Below are positions 2,793 to 18,192 of a DNA stretch of 43,321 nucleotides, in pieces (position 1 is the first letter of the stretch; the number at the start of each line of letters is the position of its first letter). The DNA is taken from positions 1 through 43,321 of the forward strand of contig JABWAK010000027.1 in the NCBI GenBank assembly GCA_013361065.1, written 5' to 3'. The stretch comes from Bacteroidota bacterium. GTDB lineage: Bacteria > Bacteroidota > Ignavibacteria > UBA10030 > UBA8401. A model generated the notes under the pieces. That model was not told the origin of the DNA and searched no databases. It worked only from the letters and a program-made list of their open reading frames with translations. The translations under genes and the position numbers were made by a program.

Positions 2793-3341
2793 TTACAGAC
2801 TGAACAACACGCGAACGATGAATACGGCACCGAGCATACCGAAGAAGTCAGCAACGAGACCGGCCGGCAATGCGTGACGCGTATTCTTGATCCCGACAGA
2901 ACCGAAATAGACCGCCAGGATATAGAAGGTGGTCTCGGTACTGCCGAACATGGTGGAGGCGAGTACGCCGATGAACGAATCGGGTCCGTTGGTCTTCATC
3001 AGCTCGGTCATGAGTCCCATCGACCCGCTGCCGGAGAGCGGCCGCAGCAGAGCGAGCGGCAGCACATCGGCCGGCATGCCGATCAAATTGGTGAGCGGCG
3101 ACAGGAGCGATACCACGACATCCATGGCACCGCTGGCCCGGAAGATACCGATGGCGAAGAGCATCGCCACCAGGAACGGGATGATCTTCACGGCGGTGTT
3201 GAATCCGTCCTTCGCCCCTTCCACGAACACTTCGTACACTTTCACTTTCTTGATGAGTCCCCATCCCAGGAAGACGACGATGAACATCGGGATGGCGAAT
3301 GCGGAGATGATATTGACGATGGATTTGAAGGTCTCAGCCAC
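2793..3341 (-). CDS. spmB: SpmB-like nucleoside-recognition (Gate) membrane protein
   Basis: 182-residue integral membrane protein of the SpmB family. In Bacillus, SpmA/SpmB are needed for spore-core dehydration, but homologous pairs occur in many non-sporulating bacteria, where their substrate is unknown. Family features seen are the PLSGSGSMGLMTEL segment, the STMFGSTETTFYILAVYFG motif, and about five hydrophobic helices. The start is a GTG at 3341: it overlaps the last eight bases of spmA (GTGGCTGA) and is preceded at a good distance by GAGAGGAGG, a strong Shine-Dalgarno. A longer frame upstream merely shadows spmA. The 8-bp overlap indicates coupled translation with spmA and a probable complex. 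Confidence 0.9.
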   Translation of the reverse strand: MAETFKSIVNIISAFAIPMFIVVFLGWGLIKKVKVYEVFVEGAKDGFNTAVKIIPFLVAMLFAIGIFRASGAMDVVVSLLSPLTNLIGMPADVLPLALLRPLSGSGSMGLMTELMKTNGPDSFIGVLASTMFGSTETTFYILAVYFGSVGIKNTRHALPAGLVADFFGMLGAVFIVRVLFSL

Positions 3342-4317
3342 GGGCCGCCTCCTCTCCGTCGATCTCCAGTTCCTTCTTGTACCGCGGGAGACGCTGCAGC
3401 AGTTTGACGGCGGTAAGGCCGGCGATGGTCGCACAGGCGGCGCCGAAGATGGAGGTGCCGATGATGATGCCGGGGTCGGCAGAGCCGAGTCCGGCACGGA
3501 TGGCGATGGCGGTGGCCGGGATAAGGGTGAGACCGGAGGTATTCACCACCAGGAAGGTGCACATTGCATTGGTGGCGGTACCGGCCTTCGGATTCAATTT
3601 GTTGAGTTCCTCCATCGCCTTCAGCCCCATCGGCGTGGCGGCATTGTTCAGACCGAACATGTTGGCGGCGATATTCATGATCATCGCGGCAACAGCGGGA
3701 TGGTTGGAAGGGACATCCGGGAAGAGCCGCCGGGTCACCGGGGTCATCACCTTCGTCAGCGCCTCGAGCAGTCCTGCCGCCTCCCCCACCTTCATGATAC
3801 CGAGCCAGAGTGCCATCACGCCGATGAGCCCGAGCGAGATGGTGACGGCGGTATCGGCGAATTCGATGGCGGCCTTCGTGACCGCTTTGATCTTGACGAA
3901 TGCGATCCGTTCCATGGTGAACGAGAGCGTGCCGGATGCGGCATCATAGGAATCGACGCTCGCCTCCATCGTCCCCTTGCCCGCCACCTCCGCCATCCGT
4001 TTCCAGTGGGCGGGGGTGGCATCGGACACCGTGATCTCGAGTTTTTGTCTGCCGGATGCCAGGGTGGTGAGGACCGCCGGTTGACGGATCTCGCCGGCAG
4101 CTGAGGTGATGCCGTAGAACTGATCGAACGATGCTGCGGGGATGACGATGGTACCTTCAAAGACGGGATGGGCGGAAGTGCGCTGACGGGTCTGCTCGAA
4201 TCGGGCCGGGACCGGCTGACCGTTCCGGTAGGGATCGGTCACGACATCATGGATGTCACGCCCGATCGCCGTAAAGATGCCGATGAGCAACAGGGAGATC
4301 CAGACATAATTGAGCAT
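3334..4317 (-). CDS. spmA: SpmA-like nucleoside-recognition membrane protein with large insertion
   Basis: 327 residues. After one hydrophobic N-terminal helix (LNYVWISLLLIGIFTAIG) come roughly 110-120 polar residues, and then the conserved SpmA core: ADTAVTISLGLIGVMALWLG, NIAANMFGLNNAATPMG and CTFLVVNTSGLTLIPAT. SpmA proteins are usually near 200 residues, so the polar block looks like an inserted, probably periplasmic, domain between helices 1 and 2. The ATG at 4317 was chosen; an in-frame TTG lies two codons upstream. The Shine-Dalgarno is poor. It is the first gene of the run spmA-spmB-outer-membrane protein-proline dehydrogenase-lipoprotein, and a promoter-like element lies 40-70 nt upstream. 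The transport or signalling role in this organism is not known. Confidence 0.88.
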   Translation of the reverse strand: MLNYVWISLLLIGIFTAIGRDIHDVVTDPYRNGQPVPARFEQTRQRTSAHPVFEGTIVIPAASFDQFYGITSAAGEIRQPAVLTTLASGRQKLEITVSDATPAHWKRMAEVAGKGTMEASVDSYDAASGTLSFTMERIAFVKIKAVTKAAIEFADTAVTISLGLIGVMALWLGIMKVGEAAGLLEALTKVMTPVTRRLFPDVPSNHPAVAAMIMNIAANMFGLNNAATPMGLKAMEELNKLNPKAGTATNAMCTFLVVNTSGLTLIPATAIAIRAGLGSADPGIIIGTSIFGAACATIAGLTAVKLLQRLPRYKKELEIDGEEAARG

Positions 4318-4360
4318 GGGCAAACCGCGCAGTGAATGGGCCGTGTGTTTCGGACATCAC

Positions 4361-4488: not shown

Positions 4489-5628
4489 TCATTCGGTGAC
4501 AGCGGGGAGCGTGAAGGTGAATGTGGTGCCGAGATTCACCTCGCTGGAGACCCCGATGGTGCCGCCGTGCGCCTGCACGATCAGTTTGCAGATGGCCAAT
4601 CCAAGTCCCGTACCCTTCTCCTTCGTCTTCGTGGAGGATGAGACCTGACGGTATTGTTCGAACAACAGCGGGACCTCCTCCGGTTTGATACCGACACCGG
4701 AGTCCGAAACGGAGACCTTGATGAAATCCGCCTTCAACTCGTGATGGTGTTCCTTCTCCACTTTGATGGTAACGGTGCCGTTATCGGGCGTGAACTTCAT
4801 CGCATTGGAGAGAAGATTGGTCATCAGCTGGACGATCTTGCCGGAGTCCGCTTCGACACGCGGCAGGTCCGGCTTCACATCGGTCCGCAGCTCGATGTTC
4901 TTCTTCTTGAACTGCAGCAGGAAGGGCTGGAGCGACTCTTCGATCATCTCGTGGATGGTGATGGTCTGCTTGGTGAGCAGCATCTGTCCGGCCTGGTATT
5001 TGGAGAGGTCGAGCAGGTCGTTCACCAGGTTCGCCATACCGCGGGTGGAGGCCAGAACGGTCTCCATCAGTTTCACGCTGTCCGTATCGAGCGGTTTCCC
5101 GCCGGCATAATGCCGCAGGATGTAATCGATGCTGCTGATGACGATGGTGAGCGGGGTGCGCAGGTCGTGCACGAGCATCGCCATGAACTGCGATTTCACC
5201 TGTTCCAGTTCGCGCTGCACGGCCATCACACGATAGATGGAACGGACGCGGGCGAACAGTTCCTCCAGGTCGATCGGCTTGGTGAGGTACTCCTCGGCGC
5301 CGAGCAGGATCCCTTCCGCGATGCTCTGCGGGTCCCGTTTGATGGCGGTCAGGAAGATCACCGGGATCTTGGCGGTGGCCGGATTCGCACGCAGACGGCG
5401 CAGGGTCTCGAACCCGTCCATCTCCGGCATCTGGATATCGAGCACGATCATATCCGGCTGCTGTTCCTCGGCCACCACCAGGCATTCCTTGCCGCTGGAG
5501 GCACGGAACATGGTGATCGGCTTCTTCTTCAGCGCGAATTCCAGCAGATCGAGGTTATCCTCGGTATCGTCCACGAACAGGACCTTGGGAATGGTCGGAA
5601 CGGTCTCATCTTGTTCGAACATATTCAT
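4489..5628 (-). CDS. Response-regulator/histidine-kinase fusion (REC-HisKA-HATPase)
   Basis: 379-residue soluble signalling protein with the receiver first. Receiver about 14-130: acidic pair Asp20/Asp21, phospho-acceptor Asp64 in VLDIQMPEMDG, Thr94 and Lys117. Kinase: HisKA with His154 in MLVHDLRTPL, then HATPase_c with N box LMTNLLSNAMKFTP (Asn271/Asn275), G1 box SDSGVGI and G2 box GTGLGLAI. No membrane segment or output domain. This order suits a relay in which the receiver controls the attached kinase. It is the last gene of a three-gene unit: only 3 nt separate it from the upstream hybrid kinase, and a single-domain receiver lies further upstream. The ATG at 5628 has an AGAG-type Shine-Dalgarno; a second ATG lies two codons on. 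The output pathway is unknown. Confidence 0.93.
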   Translation of the reverse strand: MNMFEQDETVPTIPKVLFVDDTEDNLDLLEFALKKKPITMFRASSGKECLVVAEEQQPDMIVLDIQMPEMDGFETLRRLRANPATAKIPVIFLTAIKRDPQSIAEGILLGAEEYLTKPIDLEELFARVRSIYRVMAVQRELEQVKSQFMAMLVHDLRTPLTIVISSIDYILRHYAGGKPLDTDSVKLMETVLASTRGMANLVNDLLDLSKYQAGQMLLTKQTITIHEMIEESLQPFLLQFKKKNIELRTDVKPDLPRVEADSGKIVQLMTNLLSNAMKFTPDNGTVTIKVEKEHHHELKADFIKVSVSDSGVGIKPEEVPLLFEQYRQVSSSTKTKEKGTGLGLAICKLIVQAHGGTIGVSSEVNLGTTFTFTLPAVTE

Positions 5629-12497: not shown

Positions 12498-15400
12498 TTA
12501 CTTCAGGAGCATCATCTTCTTGGTGGAGATGAACTGGCCGGCTTCGATACGGTAGATGTAGATACCGGATGCAACCGAGGTGCCTTTGTTGTTACGGCCG
12601 TCCCATGCCACGTTATGATACCCGGCGGCCATATCCGTGTTGACCAGCGAACGGACTTCGCGGCCAAGGATATCGTACACCGTGAGTCTCACCGACGCAT
12701 CGCTCGGCAGAGCGAACTGGATGGTCGTGGACGGGTTGAACGGATTCGGATAGTTCTGTTCCAGTGCGAATTCCACCGGCAGCAACGTACCCGGCACACC
12801 GGTCAGCGAGCTGTCCGGCATGAATTTCACCACGCGCATCTCCGGGCCCCATTCAGAACCCCACCAGCTCTTGTGGAAGCTGCCGATGGCGCCCCACGGC
12901 GTGCCGGTACCGGTATATCCATCCGGATCGAAGATGTTGACCATCACCATGACGGAATCGAACTTCGTGAATCCGAGCGAATCCAGTTTGATGACGAGTT
13001 CAGCGGAGTAACCGCTGTCCGCTGCCGTCGTGTCGTTCACGATGGTGGCGGGATGCTTCACACCGACGCCGAAGCCGTGCGAGCTGTCGGTCGCTTCATA
13101 ATGCATCGCGGAATTGCCCGGGAGGTTATAATAGAGTTTGAACTCCTTATCCACACCCTGGGCATTCTTGATCTTCATGAAGAGACCATCACCTTCCCAG
13201 CTGTCGCCGAAGCGGCTGACGGAGAGGTCCTTGGAACGGAAACCGACGAACATGTGCGGTCCGCGGCGTGCGAACTTCAGCTGCGTGAACGATTCGTCGT
13301 GTTTCGGCGAGGGTTTCACAATGGCGCCGTTGGTAACGGTGCGGGCCATGGAATCCGGATGGAACGCCGGCGAACCGAACACCAGGAACGGTGTGTTGGC
13401 CTGCCAGATCGGTTCGTCGAGGATACCATCGACCTTCACCACGTTCTTCGACGCAAATGCCGGCATCATCTTCGGATCCTGGTAGACCGGGACCGGTTTC
13501 GTCTGACGGATATCATCGAAGTAGTACGTGAAGTTCGCACCGCCGTCGCCGACCGTGCCGAGATCGAAGATCACCACGACCTTCTGGAATTTCACGGTAT
13601 CGTTGACGGAGCTGAAGTCGAACGTCAGTTCTTCCCATTCGTTCGCTTTCGTTGCCGCCACATCGACCTCTTTATTGATCGCACCGTTCGTGAGATGCTC
13701 GAGCTTGAAGAGCATCTTTGCGCCGACCTTCGGCATATAGACCTTCGCTTTGAAGATCTTGCCTTTGGTCAGGTCCACCGGAGCAGAGAGGGTCAGGAAG
13801 GAACCGGCCCAAGGATCGCCGGCACCCTTCACGGTCTTGGCCACGAAACCGCTCGTGTCCATGCCGGTCTTGAAGGGATTCGGCACTTTCATGGTCGTGG
13901 CACCGCTGAAGTTGATGAAGTCGTACGATACCATCGGGTCTTCAAAGTGGATCGGCAGGCCGAGCGTTGCCGGCACATACTTGAAGTCGTTGGAGTCGCG
14001 CGGGATGAACTGATAGTCCCACAGGCGGGGCGAGGAGGCATCGAACTGGCCTGCCACACCGACCACCAGAGGCCACGGGCCCGGGATCGGGTTGCCGGAG
14101 AGTCCGCCGAACTCCGCCGGACGCATCGTCACCGTGTCGGTGCCGTTGTCGGTCACGCGCAGGTTCAGCGCCGTACCGGTCGCACCGGCTGCCGGCCACG
14201 CCGGCGAGGTCGCCGTGAAGTTGATGTTCTTCACCGCCACCAGCGAGTTCTCATACAGTTCGCCGTTGTCGTTCAGTTCCTTCACCGTCACCACTTTCGG
14301 GATGATCGGCATGCCCGGACCGAGGTCCGTGAACGCCGGCGTCGGGTGACCCGTCCGCTCTTCGCGGATCTGCACCTTGCCGTTGAACGCCTGGATACGC
14401 GCCACCACCGAATACCGGTTGCCGCGTTTGATCTTCTGCTTGATACCGCCGTTCGCCAGCGGGTTGAACACCGTCATCGCGCCCATGTCATCCTGGAAGT
14501 TCACATCCAGGTTGATCCGCTGCGTGATGCTGTCCTCCTGGATACAGACACCCTCGATACGGATGCCGTAGTTCGCCCAGAGGATACCGCCGACAGAGTC
14601 GATGTCACGCGGACCGCCCTTATACGCCATCTTCGTCGTGCCGGCAAAGTAGCCCGGAATGACCGGTGAGGTAAAGGATTGGTTCGACACATCCTTCACC
14701 GTTGCCACGAAGTTCACGCGGCGGCCGTCGCGGTTCACCGAACCGGGGACGATCGCGCTGTACACGCGGCCCGAGGACTGCGTCAGGGTCACTGCGCCGG
14801 AGTCGACACCGTTCTGGTCGCTCGATGCGCTGCGGTAGCCGTAATACTTCACTTCGGCTGTTGCGAACGGCTTCATGCTCAGCAGATTGAAATACACCGT
14901 GTCCGGTTCCCCGGCCATCGGCACATACGGGAAGCGGTCATTGTAGGTCACGCCCGGCTGCGAGAGCGGGATGCTGAACTTCCCGACGCCGTTGTTCGTG
15001 CCGAGGGCGATCAGGGTCGTATCGGCGGCATTGTAATGGACCTCACCGGTCCCGTTGGCGTTGGCATAGTTACCCAGCGCTGCGGTCACGCCGACCACAT
15101 ACGAGGTCAGACCGCCATTGGTGATATCCACCACGCGGACCACCGACGGGGTGACGTTCCCTGCGAACATCGCCAGGAACTTCCGTCCGCCGAACTCGAA
15201 ATACTTGGCAGTGGATGCGCCGCTGGAGACGATACCCGTCCCGACGGTATCCTTCGGTGCGCCGGTCGAGTCATACTTGATGGCCGGTTTGCCGGCGGTG
15301 TTCAGCCAGAAGTCGCCCATCCCGTTCCCTACCGGTCCGATGCCCAGAACGCCGGAGGCCCAGCCGGTCGGAGTGATCTCTTTGTAGAACACCAGTGTGT

Positions 15401-15970
15401 CGCCCGAGCGCTTCAGCACGTTCACCACGCCGGGGGTGGCATTGCCTGCCACGAACACATAGGTCTCCTGGCCGGAGCCGACAACGGTCAGCGCATCACC
15501 GATACGCGGTCCGCGCAGCGAGTCGCTGAACGCCACGATCGGCGCCGCGCCTTCGTTCGCCCAGGTATAGATCCGCACCGGCGCTGTCTTGCTCACCGCC
15601 GTCTGCAGGTTCATCGTGTAGATCCGGCCGTCGCCGCTCACCGCAACGCGGTTGAACGGGAAGGTCCCGGCGCCGGTCGCAACGCCGGTCATATCCAGCC
15701 GGCCGAGCGTATCACCGTTCGCGCCGTCCAGGATCATGATCGCTTTGTACGCTGAGTCGCGCGTGGCGACCAGCACATGGCCCGTTGCGGGATTGAATGC
15801 CATACCGCGGACCAGGTCTCCCGTTCCGCCGCCGAACGGACGCTTGAACCACTGCGGCCCTGCGGCCACGCCGTTCACGAACGTACCGGCTGTATCCAGC
15901 CACACCTTCGGTAATGTGCTCTGCGCCTGGACGACCGAACTTCCGGTCACCAGTGAAGAAGTTTCTTCAT
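12498..15970 (-). CDS. Large T9SS-exported multidomain protein; signal-peptide region frameshifted
   Basis: About 1150 residues in the main frame. An N-terminal beta-propeller-like region (about 300 residues, DUF4623-like by impression) is followed by an Ig-like stretch, an OB-fold-like region, a galactose-binding-like module (about 700-850), a CBM9/DOMON-like module opening VDGILDEPIWQA, and a C-terminal type A sorting domain with NYPNPFNPSTTIQFALP, YDILGREV and a Lys-rich end. It should cross the inner membrane by Sec and the outer membrane by T9SS. The ATG at 15970 has a strong AAAGGAG Shine-Dalgarno and a promoter about 80 nt upstream, but reads MKKLLHW then TGA (15949-15947). The mature protein continues in another frame as LVTGSSVVQAQS. 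No intact signal peptide can be read, so the gene is broken here or the assembly lost bases. Ligand unknown. Confidence 0.82.
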
Positions 15971-16047
15971 ACGTACTCCTTTGTGATGAATGAGGAACAT
16001 TGTTGATTAACTGCAGGAAATATCTAGGGGATGACGCTTGATGTGGC

Positions 16048-16211: not shown

Positions 16212-18008
16212 TTATTGTACTGCGGAAAGCCGGCGCAGGAACTCCGCCGCATCGACGAATCCGGTGATCCGATCCCGCTCCGCACCGTTCGCATCGATGA
16301 TGAGGATGGTCGGCACTCCTTTGATGGCGAACCGTTTCGTCAATGCCTCGGTCGCCGGATCATCGGATCTGGTGAGATCGGCCTTGTACATCGTGAACCG
16401 GCGGGAGGCGTCGATCACGGAAGGATCCGAGAAGGTAAGCGCATCGAGTTCCTTGCACGGGATGCACCAGTCCGCATAGAAGTCGATCACCATCACATCG
16501 TTCGCTTTCAGGGACTGTTCGTACGCCGCTTCGGAGAACGGCTTCCAATCCGGCTTCAGTTGTTCGGACGGCACGAGTGCGTAGACCGAGAGGCCGGCAA
16601 CGGCGAGCATCAGTAATACTTTCACCGTCCGAAAACCCTTCACCGAGTTGCCGGTCCTGTCGATAAAGATCAGGATGACAGCGGCCAGAAGACCAAAGAC
16701 CGGAAGCACATACGGACGGACCTCGTTCGGCAAGACCGGGTCAAGGAAGTAGAGCGCCATGCCGAGCATGATGAATCCGAAGAGATGCTTCACCCCTTCC
16801 ATCCATTCACCGGAACGGGGAAGGTTCTTGATCTTCCCGGAGAAGAGCGCCAGCACCAGGTACGGCAGACCGAGACCGATCGCAAGAACGAAGAACATCA
16901 GGAATCCCTGGAACGGGTCGCCTTTCGCGGCAACGAAGGTGACCAGGCCGAGGACGAACGGACCGATACACGGCGCAGCGACGATACCCATGGTGAGACC
17001 CATGAAGAATGCACCGTATGCCCCTCCCTTCGCTCCGCCGGCTGCCGCCATCCAGGAACTGGGAAGATTGAACTCATATACACCGAACTGGCTGAGGGCG
17101 AGCACCACGAAGAGCAGTGCGATACCGATGATCACGTAGATGTTCTGGAGCAGCGTTCCGAAGAGTGCGCCGCTCAGCGACGTGACCACACCGATCACGG
17201 AATAGGTGAGCGCCATGCCGAGCATATAGAGAACGCCGAGCAGAAAGAGCCGGCTGGTCCTCCCTTCGCTCTGTCCGCCGAAGTAGCCGATAGTGATGGG
17301 GATCAGCGGATAGACGCACGGGGTCAGATTCAGCGCCAGACCGCCGAGGAAGATCAGCAGCAACGAGAGTGCGAGCCCGCTCCGTTCCAGCGTTGCCGCC
17401 AGGGAATCCTCCTGTGTTGCAGAGGCCGGAGCTCCGGCGAAGGTCTGCAGTGTCTCCGGTGCGGCAGCTGCAGCCGGATCCTGAGGATCTGACGGTGCTT
17501 CCTGTGCGACCGTCTGTTCACCCGCGGCAGCGGCAACGACCATCACCTGCGCTTCGGCGGTGATCCGTTTCGGTGCGAGGCAGGTCTGATCATCGCACGC
17601 CTGATAGAGCAGCGTGACCGTGACACTGCGCGCTCCGGGTACCGCATCAGCTGCTGCGGTGAGACGGAGCTTCACGTCGAACGTTCCCTGGAAGACCGAG
17701 ACCGGCTGGTCGGAAAAACCGAACACGACATCATGCGGAACGGGATAGTCAACGCGGGAGAGAGTGAGGCCGTCGGCGTTGACCGTCACTTTGGATGCGA
17801 TCAGCGACGGATCGTTGGGAACATGGGAATTGATGTGCCACGGCTTGTCGATCTGCACCTGCATCGTCACGGAGCGGGCACTGCCGGCCGGGATCTCCAC
17901 CGGTCCGCCGGTCACCGAGATGGTGACAGGATCGGGCGGCTGCGCATTCACAAGCGAGAATGAAAAGAAGAGGAACAGAACGGTTCGTATCACGGAAAGT
18001 CGCTGCAT
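16212..18008 (-). CDS. dsbD: Thiol:disulfide interchange protein DsbD
   Basis: 598 residues. DsbD moves reducing equivalents from cytoplasmic thioredoxin across the inner membrane to periplasmic partners (disulfide isomerases, cytochrome c maturation, peroxide defence). All three parts are visible: a signal peptide and N-terminal alpha domain with Cys138/Cys143 (CDDQTC); an Ala-rich linker; a membrane domain of about eight helices with the paired cysteines Cys231 (LNLTPCVYPLIP) and Cys347 (AAPCIGPFVLG); and a C-terminal thioredoxin domain with CIPC (Cys515/Cys518). The ATG at 18008 begins a normal signal peptide (MQRLSVIRTVLFLFFSFSLVNA); the open frame further upstream is not expected to be translated. 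It is divergent from ssb and followed by its own hairpin, so it is probably monocistronic. Confidence 0.96.
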   Translation of the reverse strand: MQRLSVIRTVLFLFFSFSLVNAQPPDPVTISVTGGPVEIPAGSARSVTMQVQIDKPWHINSHVPNDPSLIASKVTVNADGLTLSRVDYPVPHDVVFGFSDQPVSVFQGTFDVKLRLTAAADAVPGARSVTVTLLYQACDDQTCLAPKRITAEAQVMVVAAAAGEQTVAQEAPSDPQDPAAAAAPETLQTFAGAPASATQEDSLAATLERSGLALSLLLIFLGGLALNLTPCVYPLIPITIGYFGGQSEGRTSRLFLLGVLYMLGMALTYSVIGVVTSLSGALFGTLLQNIYVIIGIALLFVVLALSQFGVYEFNLPSSWMAAAGGAKGGAYGAFFMGLTMGIVAAPCIGPFVLGLVTFVAAKGDPFQGFLMFFVLAIGLGLPYLVLALFSGKIKNLPRSGEWMEGVKHLFGFIMLGMALYFLDPVLPNEVRPYVLPVFGLLAAVILIFIDRTGNSVKGFRTVKVLLMLAVAGLSVYALVPSEQLKPDWKPFSEAAYEQSLKANDVMVIDFYADWCIPCKELDALTFSDPSVIDASRRFTMYKADLTRSDDPATEALTKRFAIKGVPTILIIDANGAERDRITGFVDAAEFLRRLSAVQ

Positions 18009-18192
18009 AATGTCACTCGGTCTGGATCGGTTGTCGTCGGTCAGTGGAAGATCAGTGTTCACACACATTGAACAGTATCGCGGAGGAAATCGTTCTCCTC
18101 TCTGTTAGATGCAATATAACGGAAAATGATCCGCGGAAACAGTATGCCCTGCCGGACAATCCAACAGACAATAAAATAGAGAGGCGCATTAC

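What the first reader, a model, noticed from the sequence alone, without database searches (positions are those of the whole stretch)
15940..15990. Frameshifted signal peptide in a large T9SS substrate
The best ribosome site (AAAGGAG, 5 nt from the ATG at 15970) starts MKKLLHW and then hits TGA at 15949-15947. The mature protein, including the sorting domain 1100 residues later, continues in another frame that enters as LVTGSSVVQAQS. Even adding one base leaves a hydrophobic core too short for a Sec signal, so a longer piece (length 1 modulo 3) may be missing. T9SS cargo needs a Sec signal, so the gene as written should not be exported. The site sits on a GAAGAA-AC-TTCTTC inverted repeat, which could cause a real deletion, phase variation or an assembly error.
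Basis: partly seen in the sequence, partly recalled or inferred. Interest (0 to 1): 0.55.

Follow-up and report, generated by a model that had tools for sequence, protein, structure and literature searches.

The report
Broken export signal in secreted protein
One of two sister genes for a large secreted protein in an uncultured bacterium lacks a short piece of its export tag in this draft genome, while the sister copy and copies in a related bacterium keep it, so this is most likely an ordinary, recent gene break that still needs raw reads to rule out an assembly error.

Summary
After the ribosome site and ATG (15970), frame 0 reads seven codons and stops at 15949-15947; the 1151-codon body with its T9SS sorting domain starts at 15953 in another frame. 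Of 53 sorting-domain ORFs testable in 123 of 288 contigs, 51 have an in-frame hydrophobic N-terminus; this one scores lowest.

Real or artefact? Synteny fits one continuous locus (DsbD, gene B, downstream genes), with one conflicting relative. C161 overlaps the window by exactly 99 nt, starting at the base right of the gap, and another contig closes on itself with 99 nt, so 99 looks like the assembler's k-mer and the gapped junction seems to lie in the assembly graph. Two 89-nt end overlaps do not fit. The gap shows no microhomology. I favour a real, recent deletion (0.6) at the edge of a stretch homogenised between the paralogues, over an artefact (0.3). Phase variation has no positive support.

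The parts
16212..18068 (-). DsbD-like gene upstream of gene B
   Evidence: Pfam DsbD_TM, thioredoxin, DsbD_N; it precedes a gene-B-type start in G004:C344, G018:C61 and G006:C344
15976..15982 (-). Shine-Dalgarno-like AAAGGAG
   Evidence: read directly; a similar site precedes the G006 gene B start
15947..15970 (-). ATG start of gene B and its 7-codon frame ending in TGA (broken signal peptide)
15955..15968 (-).
15953..15954 (-). junction at which 28 nt are absent relative to three intact copies
   Evidence: alignment A1; 0 nt microhomology against the C161 stretch
15948..15950 (-). GTG in the body frame that overlaps the TGA; possible reinitiation codon (inference)
15855..15953 (-). 99 nt identical to the end of contig C161 of the same genome
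14353..14441 (-). 89 nt identical to the end of contig C39, probably the second half of paralogue A
12498..15953 (-). body of gene B, T9SS cargo of 1151 residues, open throughout
   Evidence: dN/dS 0.132 against G006:C190
12510..12752 (-). T9SS type A sorting domain
   Evidence: TIGR04183 and Por_Secre_tail, residues 1068-1148

Best explanation
The window carries gene B of a pair of paralogous T9SS cargo genes. In the sequenced population a 28-nt deletion has removed most of the hydrophobic core of its Sec signal peptide and shifted the frame. Ribosomes that start at the ATG make a 7-residue peptide; the body can at most be made as a leaderless cytoplasmic protein, for instance by reinitiation at the GTG that overlaps the stop. 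The product of this copy is therefore not exported, while paralogue A (contigs C161 and C39) keeps an intact signal. Shown: the missing 28 nt, the intact copies, conserved gene order, a contig end that meets the window exactly at the gap. Inferred: that the deletion is in the cells and not made by the assembler, that it is recent, and that it arose at the left edge of a tract copied between A and B (imprecise gene conversion).
For: 28 nt missing against C161, G006 gene A and G006 gene B. Gene order DsbD, gene B, then orthologues of five window genes in G018:C61, and DsbD then gene B in G004:C344, so the contig looks correctly ordered. C161 overlaps the window by exactly 99 nt starting right of the gap, and C156 has 99-nt identical ends, which suggests k = 99 and a graph branch exactly at the gap. 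No microhomology at the gap for an overlap-based false join. A and B are near-identical after the gap: 99 of 99 nt, then 97.8 and 98.3% nt at residues 505-624. Body otherwise intact, dN/dS 0.132.
Against: No reads were available. The related copies seen are intact, as they would be if this were an artefact. Errors gather at the borders of repeats, and the gap lies at the border of a stretch shared by two paralogues. The 89-nt end overlaps of C39 and C67 do not fit k = 99. G006:C190 joins the C161-type upstream gene to the window-type downstream genes, against the assignment of loci used here. An old break would be expected to show further decay, and none is seen.
Confidence: 0.6

Rival explanations
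1. Assembly or library artefact: gene B is intact in the cells, and the 28 nt were lost where the assembler entered a stretch shared by genes A and B.
For: The gap lies at the border of sequence shared with C161; in G006 the gene B contig also ends inside the shared stretch; short-read draft of 288 contigs; the copies compared are intact; unexplained 89-nt overlaps show that the graph is not simple here.
Against: The contig meets C161 with an overlap of exactly the inferred k, starting at the gap; an intact B similar to A would move that point to the left. No overlap exists at the gap edges to drive a false join. Gene order on both sides fits G018. No N in the window, C161 or C39.
Confidence: 0.3
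2. Mixed population or reversible switch: cells with and without the 28 nt coexist, and the assembler kept one version.
For: A metagenome-type draft samples a population (inference). A and B appear to exchange sequence in G000 and in G006, which could restore a broken copy.
Against: No repeat unit, inverted segment or recombinase site was found at the gap; only one state of the locus was seen in the one genome held for this species.
Confidence: 0.05
3. The protein is still exported: a ribosomal frameshift or another start provides a working signal.
For: The body frame is open upstream to 16049.
Against: No in-frame start within the first 130 codons of the open frame gives a segment above 1.16 mean Kyte-Doolittle over 10 residues (median of 53 cargo ORFs 2.84); a hypothetical product that joins the two frames would reach 1.43 against 2.78 for the C161 copy. 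No classic slippery heptamer at the site (judged by eye).
Confidence: 0.04

Closest known systems
Gene B start of sister genome G006 (contig C344, after DsbD)
   Same: Same place after DsbD, alike upstream region and ATGAAGAAA start
   Different: Signal peptide intact; only the first 77 nt of the gene are on the contig
Paralogue A of the same genome (C161, probably continued by C39)
   Same: 99 of 99 nt after the gap; same kind of T9SS cargo
   Different: Intact in-frame signal peptide; different upstream gene (DUF5009) and different second half
Frame-disrupted cargo genes with an intact paralogue (recent pseudogenes; general knowledge)
   Same: One disabling lesion in an otherwise open, conserved frame
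   Different: The lesion hits only the export signal, so the body may still be made in the cytoplasm (inference)

Membership tests
T9SS type A cargo | C-terminal sorting domain | tested here: met
   TIGR04183 39.9 bits, cut-off 23; Por_Secre_tail 28.3 bits, cut-off 27
T9SS type A cargo | N-terminal Sec signal peptide in frame | tested here: not met
   Absent in the window; present in the C161 copy and in both G006 copies. By hydropathy only; no signal-peptide predictor was at hand
T9SS type A cargo | Translocon in the genome | tested here: met
   SprA family TIGR04189 over its cut-off on C23, remaining part on C281
Recent pseudogene | A disabling lesion relative to intact homologues | tested here: met
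   28 nt missing, frame lost; that it is in the cells is inferred
Recent pseudogene | Further decay or relaxed selection in the body | tested here: not met
   No other stop in 1151 codons; dN/dS 0.132 against G006:C190. Compatible with a very recent lesion or with an artefact
Phase-variable gene | Repeat tract, invertible segment or similar switch at the site | tested here: not met
   No microhomology at the gap; only a short common inverted repeat
Phase-variable gene | Both states present in the population | not testable with these tools
   No reads available; one genome per species

The most novel reading that the evidence does not exclude
Two paralogous T9SS cargo genes keep exchanging their N-terminal parts by gene conversion, and the exchange switches export of one copy off (imprecise tract edge inside the signal peptide) and on again (conversion from the intact paralogue), so that the displayed surface protein varies within a population.
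Probability: 0.05. Interest if true: 0.5.

Novelty: new member of a known kind. Interest (0 to 1): 0.18.

Why it matters
If real, it is one ordinary loss-of-export allele of a surface protein, backed up by an intact paralogue. The more general points are the sign of sequence exchange between two T9SS cargo genes in two related species, and a practical one: signal peptides at the border of stretches shared by paralogues in draft metagenome assemblies need read support before they are called broken.

Tried and rejected
Chimeric contig (my first idea, notes 1 and 2): C161 plus the gene order of G006:C190 suggested that the window joins two loci. Set aside after G003, G004 and G007 showed DUF5009 protein, gene A and C39-type second half together, and G018 and G004 showed DsbD with gene B, G018 also with window genes downstream. 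G006:C190 still speaks against this.

28 nt as the difference between two assembler k values (127 minus 99): considered in note 2 and dropped, because the measured overlap is 99 nt and an intact B would put the branch point elsewhere.

Inverted repeat as cause: no support. Both window ends searched in the own genome: only themselves found. Viral contigs searched for the shared stretch: 0 matches. A second sorting-domain ORF without an in-frame hydrophobic start (on C50) was looked at; only a weak partial match (41% over 118 residues, in G026) was found in the 21 other genomes searched, so its N-terminus could not be compared. Not done: structure prediction and fold search, which would not bear on the question.

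Full report
What is there. On the minus strand, AAAGGAG (15982-15976) precedes ATG (15970) by 5 nt; frame 0 reads MKKLLHW and stops at TGA 15949-15947. From 15953 another frame reads LVTGSSVVQAQS and stays open for 1151 codons to the stop at 12498. The product ends in a T9SS type A sorting domain. The genome (G000; the window is its contig C44; 288 contigs, 97.6% complete) gave 191 first-look candidates for this protein, of which 150 were scored and 150 matched, most of the listed ones only at the sorting-domain end. It has the SprA family, apparently split over contigs C23 and C281.

Intact copies. Contig C161 of the same genome ends with 99 nt identical to window 15953-15855 and supplies an in-frame start with the peptide MKTFLQFSFMMLLCLLVTGSSVVQAQS. 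Sister genome G006 has two starts: on C190 a full-length gene (90% and 87% identical in two pieces), and on C344, right after DsbD, the first 77 nt of a gene cut by the contig end; both have intact signals. Aligned, the window lacks exactly 28 nt against all three. The gap begins after CTTCTTCA and ends before CTGGTGACC, with no microhomology against the C161 stretch.

Which gene is it? Relatives have two loci. Locus A: DUF5009 protein, gene A with a C39-type second half, and C39-type downstream genes, in G003:C3, G004:C167 and G007:C170. These are 3 of the 4 genomes in which the C161-type gene was seen in the stretches fetched; the fourth, G006:C190, has the window-type second half and downstream genes instead. 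Locus B: DsbD then gene B in G004:C344 and G018:C61, and DsbD then a gene start in G006:C344; in G003:C48 DsbD is followed by the start of a different, presumably secreted, protein. DsbD at E <= 1e-60 was found in 8 of 22 genomes of the family, the window's own included; I did not look at its neighbours in G011, G016 and G021. In G018:C61 gene B is followed by orthologues of window genes 4489-5628, 3334-4323, 2793-3497, 1421-2770 and 463-1473 in order, without the 2-oxoacid:ferredoxin oxidoreductase-type genes that the window has in between; in G018 a homologue of one of these lies on another contig. The window is thus a plausible, continuous locus B, and C161 and C39 are probably the two flanks of gene A in G000. 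G006:C190 is the result against this reading; it may be chimeric at the same repeat or a true rearrangement.

Is the gap in the cells? Of 220 contig ends tested in 123 contigs (18 or more of them cut at 20 kb, so only one end was tested there), 10 exact matches of 24 nt or more were seen: 24, 24, 25, 27, 76, 89, 89 and 99 nt (C161 with the window), and the two reciprocal 99-nt hits of C156, whose two ends are identical. The C156 overlap lies inside a coding frame that reads on across it, as expected for a k-mer overlap in a closed graph path. I read 99 as the k-mer length. C161 then ends at a branch node whose first base is the first base right of the gap, so the gapped path belongs to the graph and not to a later scaffold join. 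The 89-nt overlaps (C39 with the window, C67 with itself) do not fit k = 99 and remain unexplained; the smallest contig fetched is 3137 bases, so shorter connecting pieces may have been left out of the bin. Were B intact and like A, their identity would begin further left and C161 would end earlier. This argues for a real deletion, but not strongly enough to exclude an assembler fault without reads.

Consequence. No start in the body frame gives a hydrophobic segment. Of 69 ORFs with a sorting-domain hit in the 123 contigs, 68 have it at their C-terminus; 15 of these run off a contig or stretch end and were dropped. Of the remaining 53, 51 reach 1.5 or more on a 10-residue Kyte-Doolittle mean; this gene is lowest at 1.16 and an ORF on C50 has 1.21. 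The C161 copy reaches 2.78, and a hypothetical join of the two window frames 1.43. This is hydropathy only; no signal-peptide predictor was at hand. GTG (15950) overlaps the TGA, so reinitiation could make a leaderless cytoplasmic protein (inference). The body shows dN/dS 0.132 against G006:C190 over 1151 codon pairs; that partner may be a paralogue in part.

How it may have arisen. A and B are homogenised in part: 99 of 99 nt after the gap; between C39 and the window 97.8 and 98.3% nt identity at residues 505-564 and 565-624, then 84, 78 and 71%. In G006, 62 of 62 nt at the contig end are shared by A and B and differ from those of G000. In G004 the two genes are only 71% identical over the N-terminal stretch compared (query residues 13-140). 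In G006 the shared stretch starts within 2 nt of where the G000 gap starts. An imprecise edge of a conversion tract would explain both the identity and the gap; this is inference.

Known context. The Q-rule paper (PMC5837995; search listing and passages seen) reports glutamine after the signal-peptidase site in most Bacteroidetes substrates and a Q-value of 77% for Ignavibacterium album; here 43 of 51 cargo ORFs have a small residue followed by Q near the end of the core, and the broken gene keeps VQAQS. Two literature searches gave 6 and 0 papers; none of the 6 titles concerns such a deletion.

Noticed in passing
L128 (G000:C50) around 5360-5420, + strand: A second sorting-domain ORF without an in-frame hydrophobic start; just upstream another frame begins MNIILLILSLPVK and stops at TGA, much like a second frame-broken signal. 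No close relative in 21 other genomes to compare with.
   Followed up: partly
51 cargo ORFs in 123 contigs of G000: 43 of 51 have a small residue followed by Gln near the end of the hydrophobic core, in line with the Q-rule reaching this lineage.
   Followed up: partly
L030 (G006:C190): Joins the C161-type upstream gene to window-type downstream genes, unlike G003, G004 and G007; either chimeric at the A/B repeat or rearranged.
   Followed up: partly
window 12501-15953 against L030:3151-7077: The window gene has one copy of a repeat of about 160 residues (query residues 666-823) that occurs twice in the G006:C190 gene; the number of copies could be real or an assembly collapse.
   Followed up: no
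L179 (G000:C156): 3240-base contig with 99-nt identical ends that closes inside a coding frame of a secreted-type protein; looks like a graph loop, not a plasmid.
   Followed up: partly
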